Shown here: in pieces, positions 18,014-58,100 of the stretch
How positions within the stretch are numbered: position 1 is the stretch's first letter
How the letters are laid out: each line of letters opens with the position of its first letter
From: Oidiodendron maius Zn
Taxonomy: Eukaryota > Ascomycota > Leotiomycetes > Myxotrichaceae
NCBI GenBank assembly: GCA_000827325.1
Contig: KN832879.1
Span: forward strand, 1,178,001 to 1,242,000
Direction of reading: 5' to 3'
DNA length: 64,000 bases
Made by a program: the position numbers and the translations under genes
The notes under the pieces: model-generated
What the model was told of the DNA's origin: nothing
Database searches by the model: none
What the model saw: only the letters and a program-made list of their open reading frames with translations

Positions 18014-20979
18014 CTAGGCAACATGTGATTTAAGTAACTGTACGACGGCCTCGTGCCCTTCCCCAGTGGCCAATAATAGTGGTGTCCTGCCAAAGAAATT
18101 CTTTGACTCGTGATTGGCACCTTTATCGAGTAGTAGCTGTACTACTGCTTCACTTCCACGCTCGGCAGCCCACGATAATGGCGTCTGGCCTGCAATATCT
18201 TTTGACTCTAGGTTGGCACCTTTATCAAGTAGCAGCTGTACTACAGCCTCACTCCCTGCTGTAGCAGCCCGCATTAGTGGCGTCTGGCCAGAACGATCCC
18301 TTGACTCATAGTTGGCACCTCTATCGAGTAGTACCTGTACTACAGCCTCCCTCCCTTCCCCGGCAGCCCACGATAGCGGCGTCTGGCCATTTCTATCTTT
18401 TGACTCGAGGTTAGCGCCTTTATCAAGTAACAGATCCAAAATAATATCGTGCCCAGCCTTGATAGCCCACCAGAGTGATGTCAGGCCTCCACTATCTTTT
18501 GATTCAGTGTTAGCGCCACCATCGAGTAGTAGCTTCACTACGACCTCATGCCCACCCTCCACAGCCCATAATAGTGGTGTCTGGCCTTTACTATCTTTTG
18601 ATTCAGTGTTAGCACCTCTAACGAGTAGCAACTGCACAATAGTATCGTTACCACCCTTGGCAGCCCGTAATAGTGGTGTCTGGCCTTTACTATCCTTTGA
18701 CTCTTGATCGGCACCCTTGTTAAGTAGTAGCTGTGCAACGGCCTCGTTCCCTCCCTCGGCAGCCGATGATAGTGGCGTCTGACCATTTCTATCTTTTGAT
18801 TCTAGGCTAGCACCGTTATCAAGTAGCAACTGCACAACGATCACATACCCACCCTTGGCAGCCCTTAATAGTGGCGTCTGGCCTGCAATATCCTTTGACT
18901 CTAGGTTGGCGCCTTCATCAAGTAGCAGCTGTATAACAGCCTCGCTCTCTGCCTCAGCAGTCCATGATAGCGGCGTCTGACCTAAGTCGTCCTTTGAGTC
19001 AGGGTCAGCGCCTTTAACAAGTAGTAGCCGCATAACAGCCAGATGCCCACCCTTGGCAGCCCATAATAGAGGTGTCTCGCCTCTTTTATCTTTTGACTCC
19101 AGGTTAGCACCTTTGTCGACTAGTAGCGGTACTACAGCCTCGCTCCCTGCCTCCGCAGCCCACGATAGCGGTGTTCTACCGGACATATCCTTGGCATCAG
19201 GCCAAATGTCTGTCCGGGTTAATAACAACTTGACTACCGTCTCATGTCCTCTCTCGGCAGCGTGCGACAATGGAGTCCTTCCTCTGATATCTTCCAGTTT
19301 GTCCTTGGTGTGATTTCGGGCAAGAAACAACATTATTAGGGTCTCCCGTCCTTCCCTCGCAGCATGTGACAGTAGCGTCTGTCCATTTCTATCTCTGTGT
19401 TCGGCTTCGACATCACTTCTTGTTAGTAATAGCCAGACCACTTCTTTGTGTCCCTCAATGATTGCATGTAATAGTGGTGTCCGACCTTCGTTATCGTTGG
19501 AGTTGGCATCGACATTATCGCTCTGAAGTAATAGCCATACCACTTTCACATGTCCATGCCCAGCAGCGTACGACAATGGCGTCCGTCCAGATGTATCGCT
19601 GGAGTCAGCCTCAATATCACTTCGAGCTAGTAGAAGTTGGACTTCTTCATAATCTCCTCGCTCTGCCGCACATGACAATCTCGTCCGTTGGTTCTTAGCC
19701 TCGAACCTGATGTCAATGTCGCCGCCTGACCGTACGTTTGCCGCTTCATCGAGCTCATCTTGCACCGTGAATAAAGATAATGCCTGTTCAGCGGCATCTA
19801 ACTGTGCTGTTTGCACTCCATCGGGGAGCCTTGCATTCGAATGTAGGCTAGTCTTTTCCTTTGATGCTCGAAAATTTGCTAGACGCCGTTGCCGGATACA
19901 TATTTCCCTCGGAGGATATAGTGATTGTTTAAAATTGCTTAGATTGATCTGCTCGAGCTCTTGGCATCTGACTCTCTCAAAGAACTCCATTGTTAGAGAT
20001 AAATCTCGTAAATATATTGCGATCAACTGATCCTCTTTCCCAATCTCCGTGCAATTTAGGATGGCAAGCCCTAAACCATAACGGCCTATACCTATGAAAC
20101 GAAGTGATAACTGGATCCCTCTGTTACTTATAGTTAAAGAGCCGTTAGCAGTGATGAATGGATTAAATGGGACTATATTGGTGCATTCTTTGAATGCACT
20201 TGGGGAAGTTGCCAGAAGTCCGCCGTGATTTTCTTCTTCAGATTTCCAAGCAAAGATGCTCTGGTCATCTGAAACCTTCATAATCTCCTCCTGGAGTCTA
20301 ATAAAGGCCCTCTTCCCTTCTCCATAGATCAACGGCATATTGATACCAAATATGCCCATTAAGCTATAGGCACGATCTTCTGTCTTTGTCGTTACTCTCC
20401 CTGCCGCCCATGACATTCTTTGGGCCACGCTAACGCTATCAAGGTCATTGTTTCCGAGGAGGATATCAACTGGTATGCCGGTAATACGAGACAGAGTGTC
20501 TCGCAGAGTTGACTTTGTTCCTATCTCCTTCCATTCCTTATCAAGAAAAATCACCTCCAATGGCGCGATAAGCTCTTGAAGCGTCCATCCTCTGCTGAAC
20601 CATTTGCTCTGTGACAATTCAGGTTCAATTAAATGAGACAACCGAGGACAAGAATAATGCGCAACATCAGCCAAGCATAGCAAACATCGGCATCTTGATA
20701 CCAACTATACATAGAGTTGATCGCTTCAGAAAGTTCTGCGCTACTTTGATTGTCGATACAGCATGTGTCCATCCAAACATAGTCGTATTGGTGACCCTTA
20801 GCCATGGAGCAACATCTTTTCAGTTTTTCATATCCTTTCTTTTTACTTGCGCCGACTCCTTTCATGTCCTGAAGGGTAATTTCCGCTTCATCCCATGTAT
20901 GTGACAGAATAGCATACCGTGGGATGTTATCGTTTCTGAACTCCTGGATCTCAAGGCTGGTCGTATTTATTAGACGCAT
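18014..20979 (-). pseudogene. HET-ankyrin incompatibility-type gene with a frame change
   Basis: The N-terminus at 20979 begins MRLINTTSLEIQEF. The HET core follows: PRYAILSHTWDEAEITLQD, then YDYVWMDTCCIDNQSSAELSEAINSMY, then YQDADVCYA. The protein continues in another frame with SKWFSRGWTLQELIAP, EDRAYSLMGIFGINMPLIYGEG and a linker, then 17 ankyrin repeats to the stop at 18014. The switch lies near 20,670-20,690, and no intron signals explain it, so a small deletion or a sequencing error is likely. Otherwise about 990 residues are open. The layout is the HET plus repeat receptor type used for non-self recognition. The repeat domain would be the sensing part. Confidence 0.8.
18017..19693 (-). 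repeat. Array of 17 ankyrin repeats encoded by about 99-bp units
   Basis: Five 34-residue units come first, then 33-residue units of the form QTPLxxAAxxGxxAVVQLLL with DKGANLESKD connecting segments. Several units are almost the same, e.g. units ending GANLESKDIAG occur twice. The last unit is cut short at LLKSHVA. High likeness between units points to recent duplication or gene conversion. Confidence 0.9.
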
Positions 20980-21253
20980 GATTCCCTAGGTTTTCGTTGC
21001 AGTGGTTGGAACGACAGAAAGCGAGAGAAGTTTGCCTAACTCACTCACTCGGATGAAACATATGCGCTGTCGAGATCAACGCAGTTTAAAATCAGAAAAT
21101 TCTAGGTTGATTAGTTAGTTAGCATATGATCAGTAATCCAGCCTCACAATTTACCGGCGTAATCCCGTCAGAACAAAACGCTGTCCCTCTTCCATCTTCT
21201 TCCAACCATCTCGAGAAGCCAACGTCACATCTGCGCAGACATGGCCTGGCACT
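20980..21253. other. Short intergenic gap between receptor genes
   Basis: Upstream region of the HET-ankyrin gene, probably its promoter. No element was identified. Confidence 0.4.
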
Positions 21254-21642
21254 ATGGCGAATAAATCTAGATCAGATATCAACAAAGCTAACTTTATTGG
21301 CAATAGGTTAGATGCATTTCTCGATTCTTTCACTACAATTTGTAAGAAGCCTGCATCGAGTGTTCCGCGGATGGGTTGGATCAGATCGACGAAAGTAATT
21401 CAGATCTCCCTAACGTCGCGTTTGACCTTCTATTAGCACTGAAAAATTGTCCGGCTGCTTGTATACTCCGTCCTAACAGTAATAGCAACATCCTATTGAC
21501 CGATTTATCGAGGCTCAGCTCCACCGTCCCCTCCGATGACTTCGACTTTGACCACGTCAAGCCTCTTTTAAGTACCGTTCCCAACAACGAGTCCGCTTAT
21601 CTTGTAATCTATCTTAACTCATTTTGTCTTACGCGATTCTGA
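21254..21642 (+). pseudogene. N-terminal fragment of a fungal protein often linked to FunK1-type kinases
   Basis: The forward strand reads MANKSRSDINKANFIGNRLDAFLDSF in one frame, then DLLLALKNCPAAC ... LSSTVPSDDFDFDHVKPLL in another, ending at 21642. The segment DDFDFDHVKPLLSTVPNNES resembles the N-terminal region of a widespread fungal family commonly found before FunK1-like kinase domains. No kinase part follows. It appears to be a truncated, frame-shifted relic. The family link is from memory of the motif and is weak. Confidence 0.35.
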
Positions 21643-21865
21643 GAAAGTTCTAAAGTATTGAGCGCTTGCAAGAATAGTTAGTAATCATCTACGAAATTCT
21701 AGAGGGGACTTATTTATGATGACCATCACCACTTAAACACAACAATTAACTAGATAACTAAATATTCTCTGACATGATTTCACAACTGAAAATCCAAACC
21801 GATTCGATTTCAAAGAAATCAAATGTCCTAGTGTTATTTGGAGATATATAAAGAAACTGCAGTAG

Positions 21866-24850
21866 CTACAGGGTAGGAAGGTGGAGGCTTGCAAAAGACT
21901 GCAGTAGCTTCGTAACCGCTTCGTGCCCCCCCGCCCTAGCCCGTGATAGCGGCGTCTGACCGTAAGAGTCCTTCAATTCTACATCCACATTACCAGTGTT
22001 AAGAAGCAGCTTTACCACCGCTTCTCGCCCGTACCCCGCAGCCCACGACAGCGGCGTCACACCGCGAGAGTCCTTCGAGTCTGCGTCTACCTTGCTGGTG
22101 TCCAACAGTAGCCTCACGATCGCTTCGTGCCCGTTCCGAGCAGCCCAAGACAGCGGAGTCCAATTATAACTTCCGTCAGAGCCCTTCAAGTCCTCCATAT
22201 TCATAATATCCACAAGCAACGGCCAACCGCAAAATTCGTGACAGCCCTTCGAGTCCCCGTCCACCTTGCCGGTGTCCAGCAGCAATTTCACAATCGTTTC
22301 GTGGCCATTCTGCGCAGCCCATGACAGCGGTGTCCGATCGTAACAATCCTTCGAGTCCACGTTTAACTTGCCGGTGTCCAACAGCAACTTTACGATCGCT
22401 TCGTGCCCGTTCTGCGCAGCCCACGCCAACGGTCAGACCATACCCTATGTAACGGTCCTTTGAGTCCACGTCCACATTGTTGGTGTCCAGCAGAAGCTTC
22501 ACGACCGCTTCGTGCCCATTCCGCGCAGCCCACGACAGCGGCGTCCAACCATAAGAGTCGAAACGGTCCCCCAAGTCCGCATCCACCTTGCCGGTATCTA
22601 GCAGCAGCTTTACGACCGCTTCATGCCCGTTCCCCGCAGGCCATGATAGCGGTGTCCGACCGCAATAATCCTTCAAGTTGGCTCTGATGTTTTTGTCTCC
22701 GTACTGGCCCATTAAAAGCCTCTTTGTCAAGTAAAGAAGCCCATGAATTGCTGTAAGGTGCAGTCCAGTTATAGGATTTGGGGAGTCTCTACTATAAACT
22801 TGATATTTATACTTTAGTATCAGCAGGGCTTGGATAGTAGATTCTACCAAGGCTTTATCACAGAGGAATGCCAGCGCTAAGCAAGAAACAGTGTTTTCTA
22901 CTGGTCGTGTTGTTCACCCAATAACGCGTGGAGTAGTCGAAAAATGCATTCTCCGCAAGCCTCTGTTCGAAAGCTTTAACACTGCTACAGCTGCCGTTTT
23001 GGAACGTGCTGAAGGATAAGTACGTCAGGCAGGTTACTGACATCTCTTTCTGAGCGCCAGGGTTCCATTCCAATCCTACGCGCTTAAAGTACTCTTGTGT
23101 TGTGTGGTGCACAAGGCGGATGATGTTGCCCTTCTCATCCGCTATAACAAGGCCGGCGCAGACAGAGATGATATCATCCACGTCAAAAATGTTATCGGTG
23201 TTTAGACTTTTATCACCTGGCTCGATAGCTAGCGCATGGCATAGCTCTGTCGTCGTAAGTAATCTCTGCGCATAACTTATCCAGCATATAGCTCGCCGAG
23301 CAAGCAGGCGATCTTCATTGAGTTGTCCGTCTATTCGTTTAATCGCCTCATTATAGGCCTCATCAAGCGCTGCTGCCCCTTTAGGGAGTTTGTCCAGCGT
23401 AGAGAGCACTCTGTGCTTTGTCTTTTTATCAAGAAGTGAATCAATATGCAGGCACGCAAGAAGGAACCTAACAATTCTATTAACATTGCTCCGTGCATAC
23501 AGTATAGTAGAGATCACTTACATGCCATCTGCAGCTTTAACAATCTTATCCTGCACAGCCTGCTTGAGTCCATCATCGCGTTGGACGCATTTCGACAAAC
23601 GTGGCATCTGACCTGTCACAAAGCACCTCACGTCCTCTTCACTCGCATGCACTTCCAGTATGAGGGCCGATTGAAACATCGATGTTATTTCGGGGAGAGA
23701 ACGAGAGGTGAAGAGAAGCCGCATGTCTGTACTAACTTGCAAATCACACAATTTATTGACAAGTCGATTTCGCGCACCATCTCTGTTTGCACATTCGTCC
23801 AATGCATCAACTATGATGTAGACTGCAGGATAACTTGAACATATAGACTGTAGAGCACAGAATATCTCGTCGAAAGACGGTCTGCTTCTTTGCCTTGAGT
23901 GGAAGTCATACATTTCCTTCACTGGAGCAGCTATGTTCGGCAGGCTCTGAACTAGCTGCTTTAGAATAGCAGCAAGCAGAGTCGTTGCACTTTGATCGGC
24001 TTGTATCTTGTAGCTGCAGAACAGGTAGGCGACTCTGATGTCATCACCTTGTATTGTTCTGCAGAGATGATCAACGGTGATTGCCGCCATCATCGTTTTT
24101 CCAGCTCCTGGTATACCAGGACAGAATAGCGTCTTGTCAGATCCCTGTAGCCATCTCTTGAACTCAGGAGAGTCTAAGAACCATTGTCCTGTGCCTTCAT
24201 GTCTCCGAGTGATGATATCATGCTGCTGGGCGGGGAAGTCAGTCGGCGAGAGCCACTCTATAATAGCATGGCGTTCTTGGAGTTTCAGAGCATCCCATTG
24301 CAGATTCTGCGTGTCCTGAATCGCGACGACGTGCGCCTGGAGGAGAGGTAGGGTGTTTCGCACAATTAAAGTGTCTTCCTTGATCGCTAAAGACAGTTTC
24401 CTTAACGGGGTGAGTACATAATTTTCGCCAATATTGATGCACATACAGGTGATCCATCTCGAGCGCAATATTCACTAGACTCTTAAGCCGCTCCATTCTT
24501 GCCAGGATGCTTGCTACTTCTTCCTTGCTGAATTTCCACAACAGCCGCTGCTTAACCTTCTGTACGCCATCTTGAATCTCCACTGTTGACCGCAGCTGTT
24601 CAAGGGCCTGCTTGTACTGGTCGAGAGGTCCGTTCTCGACGTTGAGATTCCGAACTGCTGTGAACCAAGCTCCCCCGGTTTGGTCTAGGTTGAGATGATA
24701 CAGAAGATTAATAAGGATACCGTATAAGTTTGAAGCCTCAGTCGCACAATCCCGGCATTCTTTTGGAGCGTATTTGATGTCCTTGAGGTACTTGATCACT
24801 TCGCCTGTGAGCTGTAGGACGGTGATGATGCTGGCAATATCACTGAGCAT
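21866..24850 (-). pseudogene. NACHT-ankyrin receptor (fungal NLR), two frame changes
   Basis: Start at 24850 (MLSDIASIITVLQLTGEVI), the usual opening of the fungal N-terminal STAND domain (Helo-like/PF17111 type). Intron 24401-24446 (46 bp, GTATGT...AAG) joins EMDHL to KLSLAIKED. The NACHT domain follows: P-loop GIPGAGKT, Walker B YIIVDALDEC. Intron 23468-23521 (54 bp) joins ADGM to FLLACLHID. A winged-helix-like region leads to about eight ankyrin repeats ending LLQSFASLHLPTL at 21866. The frame changes twice, near 22,915 (after YWVNNT) and near 22,430 (inside an ankyrin unit), each consistent with loss of one base in a C-rich run. These may be real lesions or base-calling errors. One ankyrin unit is followed by an unusual 24-residue spacer. 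Likely cytosolic immune or incompatibility receptor. Confidence 0.8.
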
Positions 24851-25001
24851 CCATTTCGCGAAACGCAGATGGACTTGCAAATTAGAACACCGCACTTGCG
24901 CGAGCGATGTTGTTTGAGCATGGGCGGCAGCCCTTTATCAAGGTGCTGGCGGTTTCTGCGCCATCGTGTGCCCTGTGCATCTCCTTGACCAGGCACATGC
25001 G

Positions 25002-44799: not shown

Positions 44800-46639
44800 T
44801 CACCCGTCTCTCTTCTCCATTGCCGAGCTCATCTCAATAATCTCTGTATTCTGTATATCTAGTTGGTCCCCCTTAATGTCTGCAGCACTCTTATCTCTCG
44901 AGCCGTATATGCGCAGCATGCGTTTATCCTGCCACCAGACGATGCCAATCCAGATGATGAGCAAGACGGTAATGCAAACCATGGCGATGGTGCCTTTGAA
45001 GAATCCGGTCGAAGCATCAGTGGCAGGGTAGAGGATGATCCCCCAGAAGGAAAAAAGGACAGATGAGGCACCATTCATGGAGTAGAGAATAACAGCACGC
45101 GCCGCATCGTCACCATCGCGCATGAGTACTTGCGTCGCCCAGGCAAAGCAGACAGGCTGGATGGCGTAAGCTGTTCCAGCGAGGTAATACGCAGCCATCT
45201 TGGCGCCGATGCTGATATGATTCCAGCAGAGGAGGATGATACATGACACAATTTGGAGGACACAGGCGACCAGGCCCCAGGGTGCATGTTTGTGGGTTGC
45301 ATCAATGGCAATGGCGGTGAAGAGAGTGGCAACAATTCCGATAGCAGTGAGGCCAAGTGGGTAGTCGTTGTTATTGGCAACGGAGAAGTGGCCAGTCGTT
45401 TTCATCCACAAGAGCATACAAGATTGGGTGGAGAAGGCTTCAAGGGCACCGCCTATGACCCAGAACATGGTGAATATCCAGCTGCAAAGTTGTCAGTTAG
45501 ATTTCATAGCAGAAGAGGAAATGGCATAACTTGCAAGTTCATCTTGAAAAGAACACGTTTGATGAGAGAGAAACCAATGTTGTGACCTTCCGGATTTTTA
45601 GGTGGGAGTCGGCTGATGGCGAGAGCTCTCTCCTCAGACGAGAAGTATGGTGCCTTGGTGTTTTCTGGGAGATCGGGAAAAGATAGGAATCCGAAGATTG
45701 CGATGGGGAGAGTGATGATACCATCGATGATGAAGACCCATCTCCAGCCGGGAAGACCTGCATGGCCGTTCATGGTCGTGTAGACAGCGGTCATCATAAT
45801 ACCTAGTGAAGTGTTAGCATTGTACATATATTGAGCGATTACTTTATGACTGCTAGGCCAACTTTGGGCTAGCATTGGAATGTTGGACGCTTCAGGCGCA
45901 TGCCACACGGAAATCCCTACTCCATCTTTTTTCTTATTTCATGCGGCCACCCTCCCAGGATCCCGGCACCTGGTTGCGCTCACGTCGCATTGAGGATTGA
46001 TTGTGAAGCCATCACTTACCAGCAAACATAGTCCCCGCCATTCCAGAGGCAGCGAAGAGACCAATACGTTTCCCAATCTCATGCGACTTATACCATGAGC
46101 CAATAACATATTGGGTGCCGCTATATGTAGAAGCCTCGACCATACCCTGGAAGAAACGGACAGCAGCAATTTGACTGAAGTTATGCGTTGCAGCAGAGCA
46201 CATGGTAAGACCAGCCCAGATGAGGGTCATAAGGGGAAACCAGATGCGGGGTGGGATGACCTGGATGGCTAAGGCATGAGGGACTTGCCCAATTATGTCT
46301 GTGGTAAAGTCAGTAAAGTTTATCCACTTTTGAGGATATATTGCTGCGAACATCCGACTAGATGAATATTAGTGAGGATTCGAGATCAGAGGGAGAAGAT
46401 TAGATACCAGTAAGACAAGTAACTAGGATGTTATACTCGTTTCCAACAAGATGAAGATCCTCCTTGAGACCAGAGACGTAGGCATTGGCAAGGGCAGCCC
46501 GATCGAGATAATTGAAGAAGAAGGATAGGCAGCAGTATGTAAGAATAAAGAAGTCGATCTTACGGACGAGCTTGCGCTCAGTGGCCGTCGGAGCAGGTTC
46601 ACCCCATACGAGGACCCGGAGGTCATAGAGCCATCCCAT
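44800..46639 (-). CDS. MFS transporter, anion:cation symporter (Dal5/pantothenate-transporter-like) family
   Basis: Exons 46639-46408, 46298-46020, 45802-45535 and 45481-44800 give 486 residues with no breaks. Introns are 109, 217 and 53 bp. The last has a GC donor (GCAAGT...CAG), which is the only way the frame closes. Features of the family: LVRKIDFFILTYCCLSFFFNYLDRAALANAYVSGLKEDL (first helix region, in pieces), IWAGLTMCSAATHNFSQIAAVRFFQGMVEAS (helices 3-4), GWRWVFIIDGIITLPIAIFGF and a C-terminal six-helix half ending with a charged cytosolic tail. Plasma-membrane importer of a small organic acid, vitamin, peptide or sugar acid; the substrate cannot be told. It shares a promoter with the Zn2Cys6 gene to the right, the usual layout of a transporter and its own regulator. 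Confidence 0.88.
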
Positions 46640-47074
46640 GATTGTTATCGCGAAGTTGAAACTCGACCTCCGGAGCTATCTATTACGGAGCGAAGAAAAA
46701 GAATATTCACAAGATGAGGTGAATATCCTGTCGATCTTTGTTCAGTCTCGATGTTGTTGAATGAGATGTTGAATTAACATCAGAGGCAGTATAGGAAGGA
46801 AAGGCAGTGCCTCCAGAATTTATGAACAACTGCTAAGATGGGGCTGGCCAGTTAGGTCAATGTTCCTCCGGTGATGCATCTTACCCCACCCTTTAGATAG
46901 GGGATTTATATGGGGAATGCGGCGAATGTTCACTTCGTCGTGCTAGCAACCAATGAGAAGGCGCTGCACTCTCCGAACCCCCCTCCCACTCAACGACGAC
47001 TTCCGAGCATGCAGAAATGTCACCATAAATGGTTTTACTACCGCGTACTTCCTGACTCGACCAGTACCGATCGA
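46640..47074. promoter_or_regulatory. Shared promoter of the MFS transporter and its neighbouring regulator
   Basis: A 435-bp gap between diverging start codons. It contains CTCCGGAG near 46,669 and other CGG triplets that could serve a Zn2Cys6 factor, but no spacing rule can be confirmed. Confidence 0.5.
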
Positions 47075-49360
47075 ATGTCGAGTTCATCCAGCCCCATGCG
47101 GCCAGGGATGAGCAATCGGCGTACTAGGATCGCCTCGTGCGAGCCCTGCCGGCTCTCCAAGCTGGCATGCGATCATCGCCGGCCGGTGTGCTCTCGCTGC
47201 CTCAACCGCAAGACCGACCCCCAGTGCGTTTACAGGGAGAATCCATTCAAACGGAATCGATCAATCGCCATATCTGAGCTCCTGCCAACGAGGTGAGTCC
47301 CAAATCAGAGCATCCGGTCTCGTTAGGGATTGATGTTTGAAGGCTACGTCTAGCAACTGCAAATTAACTATCGGCCGATAGACCTAGCCTAACCTTTCAG
47401 ATGAAGCCGTATCCGAATCCCGGCTTCCAGGGCTCATCATCTCTCAAGACCGTGTTGGATAACCTGGGTGATCATCTTGCTGTCAGAAACGAGACATCTC
47501 GATCCGATCCCAGCGGGCAGCATTCATCCAGGGATGCAGTATTGCGTGCAGATAGCCGCAAAATGGTTGACGAGGGAGTGCAGTTGCTGGGGTCATTCCT
47601 GGATTATCTCGCTGACGATGCCTTTCGGCAACTCTTCTCCGATTGGAAGAGTAGTGGGCTGCAAGGCCATCTAGGCACATTTCTAATCTACCCGTTTTTT
47701 GGTAGCCTCGCAAACGAGATCAATGTCACCAGGCAACTGCAAAACCGACAAGCCAGCCTTGTTGCGCTTTCCCAGCGTCTATTTGAGAAGGCGAGCGAAC
47801 CGGTGGACATCCACCGGTCGATGACACTGCAGGAATTTTCGGCGCAATACACCAGCTCGAACCTGCGGTGGGAGACGGTGGGTTTAATTATCACCTTAGC
47901 GGGGTAAGTGAGTGCATTAACCAAGGCCGTCGATGCCAAGCTGACAAGTATTAGCATAGCTGTAACTGAAATTCGGGTGCCAAACGCTGTCTGCAAAACC
48001 GAAGAAGAGCGGCAGGTTCTTAGAACAAATCTAGTCCACTACAGCAACAAATGTGTCGCATTCTGCGATTCTCTGGATACTTTGAACGACATCTCCATGA
48101 TCTTCTTGTACGAAAGCTTTCTACTTGCTTCAATGTTCTATGGCGACCAAAGTACGTGTGCTGCCATGATCTCCTTCCTCGATAATGGGCCAGTCTGACA
48201 TTTTGTAAAATTAGGCTTCAAGGTCTGGCGACGGCTCAATCACGTATCCAGCGCCATATTTGCCGACGGCCTCCACGAAGCTGTCAAAGAAGAACAGCAC
48301 TTACCATTTTTCCTGGTCCAGCTTCGCAAACGCCTTTTCGCCCGGATATATGGATCGGACATCAGCTTTGCCGTCTTTCTCGGACGACCGCCGCGGGTAA
48401 GCAAGCGTTTCTGTTTCATTAATATGCCTCTAGATCTCGACGAGGATTCATACCAGCTGGTCGGGGACGCTCTGGATGAAGAGCTTAGCCATTTGGACCT
48501 GAATGGCTGGAACACTAGGGGAGTGGTCAGAAAGAGTGCAGTCATCCGATGGTCCATGATCACGTCGATGATCCGAGAGGATACGTTAGAGGTATTACTC
48601 GGTCGCAATCTATCGAATGTGCTACAGCGAATTAGGTACGTTGTTTCATCAATTATCAATCCTCGAGGTGCGTGCTTAAATTACAACAGTGACCACCGAT
48701 CTAGAATCGAGCATGCATGGAATGATCTTCCCTCCTTTCTCACAGTGCCAAGTCGGGATCTATGGCAGCAAGGGCGTTCTTGTCATGAAGTCGACATTCT
48801 CCACCAAATTCGACTGTTTTATCTTCATACTACATTTTTAATCGAATGGGCGGCATCACGCCATGGCCTCGATCAGACAGGAGAGCTCTTCAAGAAAGCA
48901 AGCGAACTCCTTGTCTGGGTCAACGAGGCTCTGGTACGGCGCGAACAGCTGTGCAACACGGGATTCACCTCTCTTGCTTGGAGGGTATGTATCCTCAACG
49001 TATCCGCTCAGTGAATGCTTTAATGACGAGAAACAGGTGGCCTCGTGTGCTCTTCCCGCTGCCGGGGCACTTGCCTGGTATCTCCTACAGGCCTCTTCCC
49101 GCAACGGATTTAAGCAACTGGACCCTTCATCACGGCGGCATAGCATCGAGAATCTTTTTGTTCTGATAGCCCATATGGGAATTTTACATGACCCAGAGGA
49201 CGGCAATTATCAACTCTTCTGTCAGGCCAAGAATGCGCTGCATTCCGCTATAGACACCATTCTCAATCCGCCGGATACCAGTCAGCCCGAGAACTCGCCC
49301 AGCATGCTGTCGGATTGGATGCTCTCTGACCACTTCGGGTTCGGGATGGATTCCTGGTGA
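47075..49360 (+). CDS. Zn2Cys6 transcription factor with fungal-specific middle domain
   Basis: Six exons: 47075-47292, 47388-47903, 47949-48151, 48215-48635, 48690-48984, 49037-49360. They give 658 residues in a closed frame. Start at MSSSSSPMRPGMSNRRTR. The zinc cluster is CEPCRLSKLACDHRRPVCSRC with a later CVY, and the basic PFKRNR follows. The motif YPNPGFQGSSS lies after intron 1, as in many members of this subgroup. FARIYGSDISFAVFLGRPPRVSKRF is the conserved core of the fungal_trans domain (PF04082). The intron at 48636-48689 is 54 bp and has no in-frame stop, so its retention would add 18 residues. Nuclear regulator, probably of the diverging transporter. Confidence 0.85.
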
Positions 49361-50692: not shown

Positions 50693-53600
50693 ATGGCTGC
50701 CGTGCTACAAGCACAAGTAACTGTGTCTGGACAGAGGTCAGTGGCCTGTTACTTATCTTTCCCCCGTGCAGCCTTGTACGCCTATTGAGTAACACGTGTG
50801 ACTGACAAGAGGTTGTAGGACACGAGGGGAGAACCTTTGGCAGCTGTCAGTTTCTTCACTCAGCCAAGAGCAGAAAGAGCTTATTGACTTCAACCATTCG
50901 GACAGACTGACGGTCCTGAAAGAAGTGGTGAACTTAGCAGAAGACAAAAAAGAGCAATGCCTTCGGAAACGGTGGACGATTAAGAAGCGAAAAGGTGGCA
51001 CACTCATCCTCAGAGATGTATTCGAGAAAATTGCTGTTTGGGCGCAGAAATTTAGAGAGATTGGAGATATCGCCGTCCAGTATGACCCTGTTCATGCAGC
51101 CTTACCGTGGGCCGGTGTGCGTTTACTCCTGCAGGTGAGTTAACATTGCGTCCTTGTTTTGGATGTCGAGGTCCCAATCTGGTTTTCGGACTTTAGCAGA
51201 GCTGATCATATTTATAGCTCGTGATCAACGAGAGCCAGCCGTTTGGAGCAATGTTAGAAGGCTTAGAATACGTCTCGAATCTCATTGCGCGTTATGCTAT
51301 AGTGGAAGAGCTATACCTGAGCCAATCCTCTGTCGCTATCCATCAATTGAGCAACTCCATCGTCAAACTCTATTCATCCATCTTAATCTTTCTCGGCAAA
51401 GCGCATGGTTTCTTCGATGACAACACAGCCAAGCGCCTCGCGAAGAGCGTTGTCAAGTTGACGGATCAAGCATTTGAAGACTTGGTCAAAGACACGAATA
51501 GGTGCCAGAAAGACGTGGACACAGACGCTCGGCTCGTTGACTCAGAGCGTCAAAGGAACATTGCTTTTACGACAATCACCATGAGCAGCAACCTTTCGAT
51601 AGAGATGGAAAAATTCGCTGCCGGAAACGAAGAGATGAGGAAGCATACAGAACAAATGCTGAAGCTTTCTGAGCATTTAAGCCATCCCGTAAAACGGGTT
51701 GCTGAGCAGCTGTCAGAGATAACTGATTTTCTGGACACGGAGAAACGACTTGGTATTCTGCAGTGGCTATCAACTGTTCCGTATGAGCAGCACCATCAAA
51801 ATGTTCGTAAGGACCGACTGCTGGGAAGTGGAATGTGGCTACTGAGTAAATCCGAATTCACACTATGGAGATCCTCGAGCGTGTCTTCCATTTTGTGGCT
51901 TCACGGGATCCCAGGTTCAGGGAAAACAAAATTGGTGTGAGTCTGTCTTCAAAGTCATATGTTTGTATAAGACCGTTGCTGAATTTGTAGTTCTCTCATC
52001 ATTGACTATCTGATTGAAGAGAGCAAAACCTCGCAAACCCCCGCACCAATCGCATATTTCTATTGTGCAAGAGACAACACCGAGCCGGAACGGGCAGAAC
52101 CAGAAGAGATTCTTCGGAGCATAGCACGGCAACTTTCTGGGCTGGATGCACAAACGCCAGTTCGGGAACCTGCAAGGAAGAAGTACGAAGATGTCAGAGG
52201 CAAAGCCTTCCAAACAAGGAGGCTTGCTTTGGATGAAATCGTCGAACTTATTCTGGTCCTCACGGCTGAAAATCCAGCCACTCTGATCATCGATGCCCTA
52301 GACGAGTGTGATCCACTACGACGGCATGAATTATTGACGGCACTGGACGAAATTATTCGGAGATCCACCAGTGTTGTCAATGTCTTTGTATCTAGTCGAG
52401 ATAATAGTGATATTGTGTGCAGGTTGGATGAGTCACCAAATCTTTACATCAATGCACAAGACAACAGCCAGGACATCAAAAATTTCATCCTCCTGGAAGT
52501 TGAGAACGCTATCCAGCACAAGAGGCTTCTGAATGGACAGGTATCTCTCCAGCTGAAACGGTCGATAGTTGAAACTCTGGAGAATGGTGCTCAAGGAATG
52601 TAAGTGGCCCAAGCCTCGTGGACAATGGTCATCTTTCACTGACCCGGACAGGTTTCGTTGGGTCAGCCTACAACTACAAAACCTATGCGATCCTCGAAGA
52701 ATGCGGATTGAAGCCGATGTACAACAGGAACTTGGCCACCTTCCGAAAACACTCGCGGATCTATACGCTGTCATCTACAAGCAGATCCTCGACTCTGGAC
52801 AGCACAGCAGACAAATTGCAGAGAGAGTGCTTAAGTGGCTCCTCATTGCTCAAAGACCCCTCAAACCCGCAGAGCTTCTAGCAGCTGTATCCGTTGATTA
52901 CTATGGGAACTTCACTAGATTGAATTCCCAAGATATTTTGAACATCACCTGCAATCTTGTGGTTCTAGACAAATTCTCAGACGCATTTCGATATGCACAT
53001 CTGTCAGTCCTTGAATACCTAGAGACCCAACCAGAGTACAGCCGGGATAATACACATCTGATGGCGGCCGAAAGATGCCTACAGATATACCTTCCTTTGC
53101 CCACGGAATGGGTGCAAAAGTCACCAGAAAATCGACTGAATTTTGAGAATACAAGTGAACAAGACGACATCCTCAGAGATTATGGCAAGCATTATTGGCC
53201 AGAACATGCTTCGGCCATTAATCAACTGCTTCGAGAACAACACTTGTACACGCGCCTTGCTACATTTCTTTTTCAAAGCCAGGAGATATTCAGACAATGG
53301 AGGACAGACGTAAAATGGATTTCTCCGGATGCACTGCCTTCACTGCTACATGATGGAATCGTCTCGTCATCGACACCATTCTTTACAATTTGCAACTTCG
53401 GGTTGACGGAGCAATTGAGAATGATGAATAAATCACAGATCAACGCCGAGAACTACTTTGCGGGTGCAATGGACTCATCGTACAGGAAAACTGCTCAAGC
53501 TGGCTTCAATGGGTTCCAAATGGCGATCAGTCGTGGTCATTATGAGACCGCCCAAGTTATTCTCGACGCTGGAATTGATCTTACTAAATGCACCACAAAC

Positions 53601-54317
53601 GGCGAGACTCCCATAGCTCTGGTAGTTGCAAATGACCATGCAAAGTTGATACCTCTTCTGGTGAGAAGGGGAGTGGATCCCAATGCCAAAAGTCACATTC
53701 GTCCCAAAGTTGTTGGCCTTCAGATAGCATATGGAAGGGGAGAGCACCGCCCTCGCTCCAGTGTGGGCTTCCGTCATGCCAAAGAGGGAATCATAAGCGC
53801 CATAGATGAAGACATCGAATGTCCACTCCATACAGCAGCATTTCAAGCGAGAACAGCTTGCGTGAACGCACTTCTCAGCATGGGTGCTGATGTGAACGTG
53901 CGGAGTTCTCTGGGGGCTAATCCTTTGCACAAAGCTTTGGAGGGGTTCCATATACATATTGCAAAGATTCTGCTTGAGCATGGGGCTGATTCAAACGCCC
54001 CACTTCTCTATGGGAGAACACCACTGCACTATGCTGCTGCGCAAGGACAGGTTGAGGCTGCACGTCTTCTCCTAGCCCATGGTGCAAATCCGCTTGTGAG
54101 AGATATGCTCGGCAAAACTCCTTACGAGATAGCTCAGCGGTATGGCAAAATAGAGTTAGCCGATATTCTTAATCCGTCCAGATTTCCTCATATGTCGGCT
54201 CCACAGCAAAGTCAGCTCAATCTCTACGGCGGAGACCCTAATGATATAGAAGAAACAGGGCCTGACATTCCTCCAAAACAGCCGATGAACATTCCATCGG
54301 TGGTTTTCAGCGAATAG
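50693..54317 (+). CDS. NACHT-ankyrin receptor (fungal NLR), intact
   Basis: Exons 50693-50736, 50819-51134, 51218-51936, 51991-52599 and 52652-54317 give 1,117 residues in one closed frame; all introns are GT-AG (82, 83, 54, 52 bp). The N-terminal domain has the DUF7708-type block FEKIAVWAQKFREIGDIAVQYDPVHAALPWAGVR. A helical linker follows, then NACHT with P-loop GIPGSGKT and Walker B LIIDALDEC, then the arm region (KTLADLYAVIYKQIL, RVLKWLLIAQRPLKPAELLAAVSV). The C-terminal third has about five to six ankyrin units (GRTPLHYAAAQGQVEAARLLL, ANPLHKALEGFHIHIAKILLEHGAD). The tail is proline-rich. Probably a cytosolic non-self receptor. Unlike the receptor genes on the left, no breaks are visible. 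Confidence 0.88.
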
Positions 54318-54660: not shown

Positions 54661-56000
54661 TCATTTTATAATAATCCTGCCCAGAACCCCAGCACTCGTG
54701 AATTCTTCAGCTTCCACTACCTTCTTCATTATACTCCTGTAGTTCTCTCCAGGAGTTACTGCACCCAACAACGCTGGCTGTCTATTCTCCGAAAATCCTG
54801 CGATTGAGACTTGGCGTCCACAGATCCCCAAGAATCCTAAGACTGCAAAAAGTACCGCCTCTTTTGCATCTGCCCTCAAGCCGTAAGCGCCTTTCTCCAT
54901 CCTTTCAACCTTTGTTTGAGGCAGTCTTTCCCTCAGCCACTTCATAATATTAGGGTTAAATGCTCCTCCACCGCAAATATACACCTCGTCGATTTTTCCC
55001 ACAACCGGGATGACATACTCCTCGTACGCTCTCACAATGGACTCAGATGTCATTCTGGTGATGGTCGCGACAATTCCGTCCTCCGAGATAGATGGATTCT
55101 TCGATCGCAATATCTCAACCTGCTCACGTGCCAGGTCGTCACTGAAAATTTCTCGCCCTGTAGTCTTTGGTAGCTTCATCCGGAAGTATGCCCTGGACAA
55201 AAACGCTTCCACGGCAGCTTGGTCAATCTCCCCCTCCCCTCTTGATCCAGCTTCACCATCCTTGTCATAGTGAGATTTTCCATTAGAGAGCAGGCGCACT
55301 GTCGCATCAATAAGGACATTTCCTGGCCCAGTATCGAAAGCAAAGTAGGAGGAGTCTAAGTCTTTCGCACAGGGCCTATTGGCAGCAGGGACAATGGTAG
55401 CATTGCCAATTCCACCAATATTCTGGCTTATCCTCGTTAAACTTGGATGAGCCATGACTGCGGTGTCAAAGAATCCAGTTAAGGGCGCACCTTGTCTCCC
55501 TGCTGCTACTTCTGCGGAGCGGAAGGAGGAGATGACAGTCCTTCACGACCGAGTCAGTGAAATATTTCTCACCCCAGCCGTCGACTTCTATCACTGGCCA
55601 GGAATACATACTTCTTCGTCTTGTTAGCAATCACTGCTGGCTCAGCCATCTGCAGCGTCGATAAGCGCTCTCCGGTCGGGGTATGCCACAGGGTTTGCCC
55701 GTGGCTAGCAATAATATCCACGTCTTCCAGGTTAACGCCTCCATCCTTTATAGCTCTGGCAAATTCTTCTCCGAGTGCAAAGTTCAGGTCGCAGATATCT
55801 TCCAGGGTCGTTGGCGCGCCAGGCTTCACCAATCCCAAGATTCTGCATCGCAGGTATGGTGTTACCGGCACTTCTTTGTAGGAGAGAAGTTCGACTGTGA
55901 TGTCGGGAGACGAGAGTTGCGAGGTGATCTTGCATATGGCAATGTCGATACCGTCTATGCTGGTCCCACAGTTCATACCTAGAACATTGAAAGACACCAT
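54661..56000 (-). CDS. anmK: Anhydro-N-acetylmuramic acid kinase homologue
   Basis: Exons 56000-55612 and 55540-54661 give 422 residues; the intron is 71 bp (GTATGT...AAG) and restores TVISSFRSAEVAAGRQGAPL across the join. Family landmarks are the N-terminal ATP/sugar motif GMNCGTSIDGIDIA (bacterial GLMSGTSxDG), ASHGQTLWHTP, QNIGGIGNAT, and FDTGPGNVLID, whose Asp (residue about 199) matches the catalytic base of the E. coli enzyme. YICGGGAFNPNIMKWLRERL is the C-terminal phosphate-binding part. In bacteria AnmK opens 1,6-anhydroMurNAc and phosphorylates it to MurNAc-6-phosphate. Fungi make no peptidoglycan, so the substrate would come from bacteria. It is transcribed away from a MurQ homologue 1 kb off, the next enzyme of that pathway. 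Bacterial origin by transfer is an inference. Confidence 0.9.
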
Positions 56001-57021
56001 TTTGGGCAAGGAACTCGTACGCAATTTCCGCTGCACGAGCTTAAAATAATCAAATTATCAACTATGGGTGTAATCGAGGATTGAAGCAGTTGATTGTGTG
56101 CGTAGCTTTACCAGTCACCTGGTTACCTGATGGTGACATGGACTTTCGGAACATTCGCAGGGGAAGAAAGGTGGACGATTGATATGCAAACCTAGCCTTA
56201 ATTTCCCCACCTCTTGGCCGGACTCGCTATCTTTTCATCTCTACTCTACAGCTGTACTGTAGCTTCGCAACAGCTCTCCTATAGGTAGGAGTCTCGGCGA
56301 GAAATATTGTGGTTCGATCGTGAGAGATGGTCATGAACGTGTCGATCTTTGCGAGGAACGTGGGATTTTGTCCGATATGAACCCCGAGATTAGGACCCAG
56401 ATCCACCACCCCGCACAAAGAGCTGCCTTGCTGATAGTGGGGTTATCATTAACTAGGACAAATGTAATAGTAGCTATGCCTCGGAGTGATCACTAGGTGT
56501 GGCCATTCACGGTACTCCGTTGGCCCGAAAATGGGAGAAAGGTCCACACATTACCCCGAGGCCTGCGGATTCACCAAGACGCTAAACCTGCTGAATAATT
56601 AATTCGAGCCGCCCTTCTCTTAGTACGTGAATGTGTCAAGACAATGTTAGCTTGTGCTTCTTTTTCATGGATGTTCAAGCTCGGAGTAAGAGCGCGGAGT
56701 AGAGACCTTGTCAATTGTTCCGCGAGCGGGAATCTTGCATTCCTCGTAGAGTTCGAATGGATTATTACCAATCGATTTACCGATTTACATCAAAGTTTGG
56801 ATTCACATGGATTTTCGCGCGCTTTCGCTCATAATACGAACTTAGAGTGGCCAGAGCATTCCATTACCGTGATCCACATGTGGACGCTCCTGGAGGAAAT
56901 AGGGCATTGATGCCACGATATTACTCAAATATAATAGCTTTAGCCTCTGCTCTCAGTTACCCCGTTGATTTCCTAGTATTAGAAATAAGTAGGAACACAC
57001 CAGAAGAAGTATCATAACGCC
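56001..57021. promoter_or_regulatory. Shared upstream region of the anmK and murQ homologues
   Basis: A 1,021-bp gap between diverging starts. On the minus strand a 63-residue frame (56227-56418, MCGVVDLGPNLGVHIGQNPTF...) looks protein-like but is not recognised. A second minus frame (56571-56771) and an overlapping plus frame (56644-56910) are weaker. A small third gene between the two enzymes cannot be excluded. Confidence 0.5.
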
Positions 57022-58100
57022 ATGGCGACCAACGATAATACCCTTGATTTATCAAGTTTGCAGACTGAGGCGATCAATATGCGGGCCAATGAGATCGACA
57101 AGGTATCGACTCTGCAGATGTGTACCATTATCAATGAAGAAGATCGCACAGTGGCCGCAAGCGTGACGCCTTGTCTACAGGACATTGCCCGTGCAATTGA
57201 CTGTTTGCTTCCTAGGGTGCGCCGCGGTGGAAGGGTGGTCTATATTGGGGCAGGAACAAGTGGCAGGTGAGTCAGCATCGCTGTTCCATTTTCATGTACT
57301 ATCGAGTCTAATTGATTGTCTGTATGGCAAACATTCAGGCTAGGAATTGTAGACAGCTCAGAGATCCCCCCTACCTTTGCGGTGCCTCCGTCGCAGTTTG
57401 TGGGAGTTATCGCTGGCGGAGATGCGGCGATCCGTCAGGCTCAGGAGGGAACAGAAGACGATCCGGCTGCAGGAATGACCGATTTAATGGTGCTGAATCT
57501 CGATCCAGAGAGTGATAGTGTCATTGGCATTGCCGCGTCTGGTCGTACTCCTTACGTCCTCGGTGCCCTAGAGTATGCAAAGACTATGGGATGCCTTACC
57601 ATCGGAGTGGTATGCGTAGTACCGTCGGTGATAGGTGAATCAGGACATGCGGATATTATGATCTCACCCTTGCCCGGTCCTGAAGTCGTCACAGGAAGCA
57701 CTAGGCTCAAGGCTGGTACGGCAACGAAGCTAGTCTTGAACATGTTGAGCACCGGAACCATGATCAGGGCGGGAAAGACGTGCGGGAATATGGTGAGGCA
57801 TCCTACTATTGAGACTTCTATGAATAAATGTAGGGACTAATTTCCAACGATGGCCAGATGGTTGATCTGAGAGCGTCGAACCAAAAACTGAAGCAGCGAT
57901 CACGCAACATTCTTCGGAAATTGAGCAAGCGATGTCACTGCATGACCGATGCATCCTTGGATGAACTCCTTTCCAGATGCGAGGGCAGTGTAAAACGGGC
58001 TCTAGTCGTTGCAGAGACAGGTCTTGCGATGGATCTGAGTACGCAGCGATTACAGGAGGCAGATGGTGACGGTTCTCTCCGGGACATAACCCAAAGTTAG
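57022..58100 (+). CDS. murQ: N-acetylmuramic acid-6-phosphate etherase homologue
   Basis: Exons 57022-57266, 57339-57792 and 57858-58100 give 313 residues, the usual MurQ length, without breaks. Intron 1 (72 bp) cuts the conserved GAGTSGRLG motif inside the Arg codon; intron 2 (65 bp) lies before MVDLRASNQKLKQRS. SIS-fold marks: VVYIGAGTSGR, then LGIVDSSEIPPTF with Glu at about 90, then AGGDAAIRQAQEGTEDD with Glu at about 121. The two Glu match the catalytic pair known in bacterial MurQ. SASGRTPYVLGALEYAK-type sequence (here IAASGRTPYV) binds the phosphate. The reaction would be MurNAc-6-phosphate to GlcNAc-6-phosphate plus D-lactate, in the cytosol. The product enters normal fungal GlcNAc breakdown. 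The related animal glucokinase regulator is the other possible reading but lacks this short one-domain layout. Confidence 0.92.

What the first reader, a model, noticed from the sequence alone, without database searches (positions are those of the whole stretch)
54661..58100. Divergent anmK-murQ pair: a peptidoglycan-sugar salvage route in a fungus
Seen: two intact spliced genes, back to back, whose products carry the defining motifs of AnmK (GMNCGTSIDG, SHGQT, DTGPGN) and MurQ (GRLG, both catalytic Glu). Known: in bacteria AnmK then MurQ turn anhydroMurNAc into GlcNAc-6-phosphate and D-lactate during wall recycling. Fungi have no peptidoglycan. Inferred: the fungus scavenges MurNAc from bacteria it lyses or lives with, or uses the pair to sense bacterial wall fragments. 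Two consecutive steps kept together with shared promoter space argue for function, not for chance remnants.
Basis: partly seen in the sequence, partly recalled or inferred. Interest (0 to 1): 0.85.

Follow-up and report, generated by a model that had tools for sequence, protein, structure and literature searches.

The report
Fungal genes for eating bacterial-wall sugar
A fungus carries two neighbouring, intact, intron-bearing genes that look like the enzymes bacteria use to turn a sugar of their own cell walls into ordinary food sugar, which suggests that the fungus eats bacterial-wall debris.

Summary
A spliced AnmK-family kinase (54661-56000, minus) and a spliced MurQ etherase (57022-58100, plus) lie head to head in a 45.9-Mb fungal genome.

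MurQ passes the curated etherase cut-off and keeps both catalytic glutamates. The kinase needed a harder test: its closest solved relative is a yeast levoglucosan kinase (345 bits against 144 for bacterial AnmK). Trees split fungal kinases into a levoglucosan-kinase clade and a second clade with the window gene; joining it to the first is rejected (AU p 1.3e-7). At three positions beside the SHGQT motif the second clade keeps the residues of bacterial AnmK (His/Thr/Gln); most of the levoglucosan clade has Leu/Ala/Thr.

AnmK-MurQ neighbours occur in other fungi (consecutive locus tags in two Fusarium species, single gene models in two more), but with a different MurQ lineage, so pairing probably arose more than once. 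The genome has a second MurQ fused to a MurK-like kinase; its 120 listed homologues (of 7235) all carry both domains. Chloroflexota, the nearest bacteria found, have anmK-murQ(-kinase) clusters.

Best reading: a horizontally acquired salvage route from anhydroMurNAc to GlcNAc-6-phosphate. No activity was measured.

The parts
55612..56000 (-). AnmK-family kinase gene, exon 1 (ATG at 56000; GTSIDG, SHGQT, and the H106/T115/Q117 signature)
55541..55611 (-). AnmK intron, 71 bp, GT-AG, CTGAC branch-like motif
54661..55540 (-). AnmK-family kinase gene, exon 2 with stop (DTGPGN, PKTTGRE, CGGGA)
56001..57021 (.). intergenic space between the two divergent ATGs (1,021 bp)
57022..57266 (+). MurQ gene, exon 1
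57267..57338 (+). MurQ intron 1, 72 bp, GT-AG
57339..57792 (+). MurQ gene, exon 2 (SGRLG completed across the intron, Glu90, Glu121)
57793..57857 (+). MurQ intron 2, 65 bp, GT-AG
57858..58100 (+). MurQ gene, exon 3 with stop; ends about where the kinase part starts in its fused relatives

Best explanation
The pair is a peptidoglycan-sugar salvage module. The AnmK-clade kinase phosphorylates and ring-opens 1,6-anhydro-MurNAc (released from bacterial walls by lytic transglycosylases) to MurNAc-6-phosphate; MurQ cleaves the lactyl ether to give GlcNAc-6-phosphate and D-lactate; the fungus's NagA-like deacetylase and NagB deaminase carry the product into glycolysis. Free MurNAc would enter through the second locus on contig C3, a MurQ fused to a MurK-like kinase. 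Shown here: intact predicted genes, families, conserved catalytic and signature residues, neighbouring of the two families in some other fungi, presence of downstream genes. Inferred: substrate, reaction, uptake and the nutritional role.
For: MurQ over the curated cut-off with both catalytic Glu. The window kinase falls outside the levoglucosan-kinase clade: 98/92 support for its own clade, 100/98 for the LGK clade, AU p 1.3e-7 against joining the LGK clade. His106/Thr115/Gln117 are H-T-Q in 77 of 80 bacterial relatives and 34 of the 50 listed hits with 46% identity or more (12 of those 50 have gaps there), whereas 64 of the 70 hits under 46% are L-A-T. Neighbours elsewhere: consecutive locus tags in F. 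nematophilum and F. lateritium; one gene model holding both in F. decemcellulare and Paramyrothecium. Window MurQ and the Fusarium-type MurQs are different lineages (AU p 1.0e-5 against uniting them), so linkage probably arose more than once. 37 of 80 bacterial loci fetched by AnmK also hold MurQ; four encode both in one reading frame. nagB (over cut-off), a nagA-like gene and two GH25 muramidase genes are in the genome.
Confidence: 0.7

Rival explanations
1. The kinase is a levoglucosan (or other 1,6-anhydrosugar) kinase like its yeast relative, and its position beside MurQ is accidental or serves another purpose.
For: Best PDB hit is Lipomyces levoglucosan kinase, 345 bits against 144; for the model of relative P0001, Foldseek and VIA-align rank it first. 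Six fungal proteins, four of them named AnmK, were tested as levoglucosan kinases in yeast: the Rhodotorula AnmK gave 10.65 U/mg, the Scheffersomyces AnmK 2.98, the other four (Lipomyces enzyme included) 1.67-1.89, empty vector 1.25 (PMC9476349, section 14 read).
Against: Separate, well supported clade, AU p 1.3e-7 against joining the LGK clade; keeps the bacterial AnmK signature that most of the LGK clade lost; lies beside MurQ here and in some Fusarium-type fungi, and levoglucosan chemistry has no use for MurQ (established chemistry).
Confidence: 0.13
2. The pair is decaying: window MurQ is a truncated copy of a MurQ-kinase fusion and the real MurNAc enzyme is the C3 fusion, so the window locus contributes little.
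For: Window MurQ nests inside the fusion clade (99/96, 99/95, 98/92) yet ends near the domain boundary, with no kinase remnant detected in the window (best E 1.2). A paralogue of the kinase on C11 appears to have an interrupted frame, so the family does seem to decay in this genome.
Against: The etherase part is complete by alignment and has both catalytic residues; stand-alone MurQ is the usual bacterial form; the AnmK partner could supply the phosphorylation step; both predicted frames are open.
Confidence: 0.11
3. The products act as regulators or sensors (a GKRP-like regulator, or detectors of bacterial wall fragments) rather than as a catabolic route.
For: MurQ shares the SIS domain of vertebrate GKRP; an NLR-like NACHT-ankyrin gene lies next to the kinase.
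Against: Only one SIS match in 313 aa against 619-638 aa for GKRP chains; catalytic Glu kept; a second NACHT-ankyrin stretch lies elsewhere in this window, so the neighbour is weak evidence.
Confidence: 0.05

Closest known systems
Bacterial peptidoglycan recycling, AnmK then MurQ
   Same: Same two enzyme families, same order of chemistry, catalytic residues kept; 37 of the 80 bacterial loci fetched by AnmK also hold MurQ.
   Different: In a eukaryote without peptidoglycan, with introns, divergent orientation, and a MurQ of fungal fusion ancestry; would be scavenging rather than recycling.
Levoglucosan kinase of Lipomyces starkeyi (PDB 4yh5, 4zlu)
   Same: PF03702 fold, 43% identity to the window protein (P0112), sister clade within fungi.
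   Different: Has L/A/T in place of the His/Thr/Gln of AnmK and of the window clade. A link to MurQ was not looked for in its clade outside this genome; here neither LGK-clade copy lies beside a MurQ hit.
MurK, MurNAc/GlcNAc kinase of Clostridium acetobutylicum (PDB 8zo3)
Glucokinase regulatory protein (GKRP)
   Same: SIS domain family shared with MurQ.
   Different: PDB chains of 619-638 aa; the window protein is a 313-aa protein with one SIS match and the etherase Glu pair.

Membership tests
AnmK (anhydro-MurNAc kinase) | Match to Pfam PF03702 with the family motifs | tested here: met
   248 bits against cut-off 24; GTSID, SHGQT, DTGPGN, PKTTGRE, CGGGA present
AnmK (anhydro-MurNAc kinase) | Curated NCBIfam AnmK equivalog score | tested here: not met
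   14 models match, all under their cut-offs; best 346.3 against 387. NCBI made these models for prokaryotic annotation, so I file the gene only as a member of the PF03702 kinases, in a fungal AnmK-like clade, not as a certified AnmK equivalog.
AnmK (anhydro-MurNAc kinase) | Residues invariant in bacterial AnmK beside the SHGQT motif (window H106, T115, Q117) | tested here: met
   H 43/43, T 43/43, Q 43/43 in the bacterial rows; 77 of 80 bacterial loci are HTQ; the window has all three
AnmK (anhydro-MurNAc kinase) | Kinase activity on 1,6-anhydro-MurNAc | not testable with these tools
   no assay
Levoglucosan kinase | Grouping with the characterised Lipomyces enzyme | tested here: not met
   Lipomyces LGK lies in a clade of 12 rows (100/98) that excludes the window gene; AU p 1.3e-7 against inclusion
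Levoglucosan kinase | Kinase activity on levoglucosan | not testable with these tools
   no assay
MurQ (MurNAc-6-phosphate etherase) | Curated equivalog score TIGR00274 | tested here: met
   331.7 against 302 bits
MurQ (MurNAc-6-phosphate etherase) | Two catalytic glutamates (roles recalled, positions aligned) | tested here: met
   Glu90 and Glu121 align with Haemophilus Glu89 and Glu120
MurQ (MurNAc-6-phosphate etherase) | Etherase activity | not testable with these tools
   no assay
GKRP | Two SIS domains in a protein of about 600 aa (two domains recalled) | tested here: not met
   313 aa, one GKRP_SIS_N match at 55-162; PDB GKRP chains are 619-638 aa

The most novel reading that the evidence does not exclude
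Fungi hold an old, widespread MurNAc catabolic system, acquired from Chloroflexota (Ktedonobacteria-like) as an anmK-murQ-kinase operon: the kinase fused to MurQ in filamentous ascomycetes, AnmK duplicated into a MurNAc-type enzyme and today's levoglucosan kinase, and AnmK was re-paired with different MurQ lineages more than once. Fungi would then be direct consumers of bacterial-wall muramic acid, the molecule used to count bacterial necromass in soil.
Probability: 0.4. Interest if true: 0.82.

Novelty: new variant of a known kind. Interest (0 to 1): 0.64.

Why it matters
Muramic acid is treated as a bacterial sugar and serves as a marker of bacterial necromass in soil (general knowledge; one search lists such papers, none opened). 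A fungal route that turns it into GlcNAc-6-phosphate and D-lactate would mean that fungi can feed directly on bacterial-wall sugars, with consequences for soil carbon accounting and for bacterial-fungal ecology. It would also explain a large set of fungal genes named only by similarity ('glucokinase regulator family', 'N-acetyl-D-glucosamine kinase', 'AnmK') and give levoglucosan kinase an evolutionary source. In the passages I read, fungal AnmK or MurQ genes were list entries or annotation labels, or enzymes tried on levoglucosan; a MurNAc route in fungi was not described in them. My ten searches cover open-licence papers only.

Tried and rejected
Levoglucosan kinase was the serious alternative and was tested by tree, AU test and residue counts. 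Fold comparison could not decide between LGK and AnmK, as both share the fold (model of relative P0001, not of the window protein). GKRP rejected by length, domain count and catalytic residues. Contamination rejected by introns and contig size. A kinase remnant behind window MurQ was sought and not found (best tblastn E 1.2). A search for FAD_binding_4 (PF01565), meant as a lead to D-lactate dehydrogenase, gave 55 matches and told nothing. Papers on AnmK and LGK structure and on MurQ distribution were not held, and one search for AnmK structure papers found none. An S66 LD-carboxypeptidase match is only a fragment with a stop inside. Two papers listed for 'etherase' and 'fungal' were opened and concern bacteria or hosts in the passages shown. 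Of the nine and nine papers listed, I opened three and three; the rest I saw as listings only. Quick trees held long-branch rows; conclusions rest on the careful trees with fewer rows, where own C6 (branch length over 2) was left out. The two AU groups were chosen after seeing the quick trees, so those p-values are optimistic. Bacterial AnmK rows come from the 80 best of 579 matches to a fungal query in one collection of prokaryotes (43 with Shewanella used, 18), so the donor inference is limited to that sampling; no other eukaryotes were sampled. The protein listings show the best 120 of 5823, 7999 and 7235 hits, so absences from them mean nothing. The first C3 fusion model had a 39-bp third intron (664 aa; its letters were also used as a row); a donor a few bases upstream gives 661 aa and was used.

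Full report
What is there. The window is positions 1178001-1242000 of contig C10 of an unnamed 45.9-Mb fungal assembly of 58 contigs. Among named hits its AnmK and C3-fusion proteins are closest to Pseudogymnoascus (71% and 68% identity); unnamed metagenome pieces of the kinase reach 95%. Two genes stand head to head with 1,021 bp between their ATGs. The minus-strand gene has two exons and codes for 422 aa; the plus-strand gene has three exons and codes for 313 aa. All three introns are GT-AG and 65-72 bp long. GC is 0.496 and 0.524 for the two CDS against 0.469 for the window, so composition does not single them out. With an assumed 13,000 genes, three AnmK-family loci and two MurQ loci, about 0.001 adjacent pairs would be expected by chance; this is my rough estimate.

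The etherase. The 313-aa protein passes the curated TIGR00274 MurQ model (331.7 against 302 bits). Its best solved relatives are bacterial MurQs (4s12 246 bits, 1nri 237, 4lzj 236), well above GKRP (77 bits or less). Glu90 and Glu121 align with Glu89 and Glu120 of Haemophilus MurQ; that these are the catalytic pair is recalled knowledge.

The kinase and its main rival. The best solved relative is levoglucosan kinase of the yeast Lipomyces (345 bits) rather than bacterial AnmK (144 bits). Of six fungal proteins tested as levoglucosan kinases in yeast, four are called AnmK; only the Rhodotorula one was clearly active (10.65 U/mg against 1.25 for empty vector; Scheffersomyces 2.98; the other four, the Lipomyces enzyme included, 1.67-1.89) (PMC9476349, passages and section 14 read). 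I could not place those proteins in my tree. In the careful tree of 49 rows all fungal kinases form one clade (100/100), sister to Ktedonobacteria (99/92). They split into a clade with Lipomyces levoglucosan kinase (100/98, 12 rows) and a clade with the window gene (98/92, 19 rows) that also holds Pseudogymnoascus, Lachnellula, Coniochaeta, Fusarium, Naematelia, Saitoella and yeasts. Holding the window gene together with the levoglucosan-kinase rows costs 92 log-likelihood units (AU p 1.3e-7; group chosen after the quick tree).

The pair in other fungi. In the listings, consecutive locus tags join AnmK and MurQ in Fusarium nematophilum and F. lateritium. One gene model holds both in F. decemcellulare and Paramyrothecium foliicola, MurQ first, which suggests a tandem order there; such models can be annotation errors that join two genes. 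Yamadazyma tenuis, Dactylonectria and Clonostachys rosea have both on contigs of the same length, which shows only that they probably share a contig. The listings are the best 120 of thousands of hits, so no rate can be given.

The pair was probably not inherited as one unit. In the careful MurQ tree of 51 rows, window MurQ sits inside the MurQ-kinase fusion clade near Monascus and Aspergillus fusions (99/96, 99/95, 98/92); its two nearest rows, P0122 and P0123, are unnamed proteins of 267 and 294 aa whose full architecture is unknown. The fusion on C3 of the same genome groups with Pseudogymnoascus and Xylogone fusions (98/93). The Fusarium-type MurQs form another clade (99/96, 10 rows, 6 of them linked to AnmK), and Yamadazyma lies in a yeast clade. 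Uniting the Fusarium type with window MurQ is rejected (AU p 1.0e-5, group chosen). The window kinase, in contrast, groups with Pseudogymnoascus and Lachnellula. So window MurQ looks like a fusion-derived copy without its kinase half (no remnant found) that came to lie beside a native AnmK. Recurrent pairing is indirect evidence for joint function. Loss from an older cluster with two MurQ copies is not excluded.

Origin. Of 80 bacterial loci fetched by AnmK, 37 also hold MurQ and 13 a kinase like that of the fusion. In five of them (L026, L034, L043, L050, L051) the order is anmK, murQ, kinase; in L046 the kinase lies between the two. Four (L028, L038, L043, L092) encode AnmK and MurQ in one reading frame of 681-707 aa. 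Many loci are cut by contig ends. Fungal MurQ is also one clade (99), with mainly Chloroflexota among the nearest bacterial rows (93). Transfer of an anmK-murQ-kinase cluster from Chloroflexota-like bacteria would explain this; I made no tree of the kinase half, which is only 24-31% identical to most of the bacterial hits.

How it would work. AnhydroMurNAc from bacterial wall turnover enters the cell (importer unknown; an MFS gene at 44800-46675 and a Zn-cluster regulator at 46901-49360 lie 5-10 kb away). AnmK gives MurNAc-6-phosphate, MurQ gives GlcNAc-6-phosphate and D-lactate, and NagA-like and NagB enzymes finish the route: nagB on C6 over its cut-off (a second match on C37 is not), a nagA-like gene on C2 (177.6 bits in its main exon, under the 225.65 cut-off for whole proteins). 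Two GH25 muramidase genes, one with a signal-like N-terminus, could release MurNAc-ended fragments for the C3 fusion. The reactions are established bacterial chemistry; their operation here is inference.

Literature. Searches for MurQ with AnmK and fungi, and for MurNAc kinase, fungi and etherase, found no paper. Annotated single genes appear in Ophiostoma (AnmK higher in mycelium, logFC 3.67, PMC4632067, passages), Aspergillus nidulans AN3499, listed next to an MFS transporter (PMC8762651), Zymoseptoria, where a listed cluster also holds an MFS sugar transporter and a transcription factor (PMC7317419), and Monascus murQ, placed under chitin synthesis (PMC9159588). Related hints are LD-carboxypeptidases in some Dikarya (PMC5567314, passages) and enzymes said to be of peptidoglycan recycling in Mucoromycotina (PMC7928374, passages). 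A 2009 study of GKRP and MurQ evolution is recalled only, and a 2008 review of MurQ distribution was not held; either could bear on this.

Noticed in passing
L015:3383-5524 (contig C3 of the same genome): A MurQ fused to a MurK-like BadF/BadG kinase, divergent from an MFS/UNC-93-like gene; the 120 listed homologues (of 7235) all carry both domains.
   Followed up: yes
L028, L038, L043, L092 (Chloroflexota): AnmK and MurQ encoded in one reading frame of 681-707 aa, apparent bacterial AnmK-MurQ fusion proteins.
   Followed up: partly
L014:4509-5667 and L013:4657-6151: Paralogues of the window kinase: the C11 copy (levoglucosan-kinase clade) appears to have an interrupted frame, the C6 copy has lost the GTSxDG and SHGQT motifs.
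   Followed up: partly
window 50802-54317 (+): NLR-like gene (DUF7708, NACHT, ankyrin repeats; NACHT_N below cut-off) directly beyond the 3' end of the kinase gene; further NACHT and ankyrin stretches at 18014-24934 and a HET gene at 8848-10473.
   Followed up: no
window 44800-49360: An MFS transporter gene (minus) divergent from a Zn2Cys6 regulator gene (plus), 5-10 kb from the kinase; possible but untested members of the same cluster.
   Followed up: partly
window 8041-8694 (-): Fragment with weak helix-turn-helix and Tc3-type transposase matches, all below their cut-offs, perhaps a transposon remnant.
   Followed up: no
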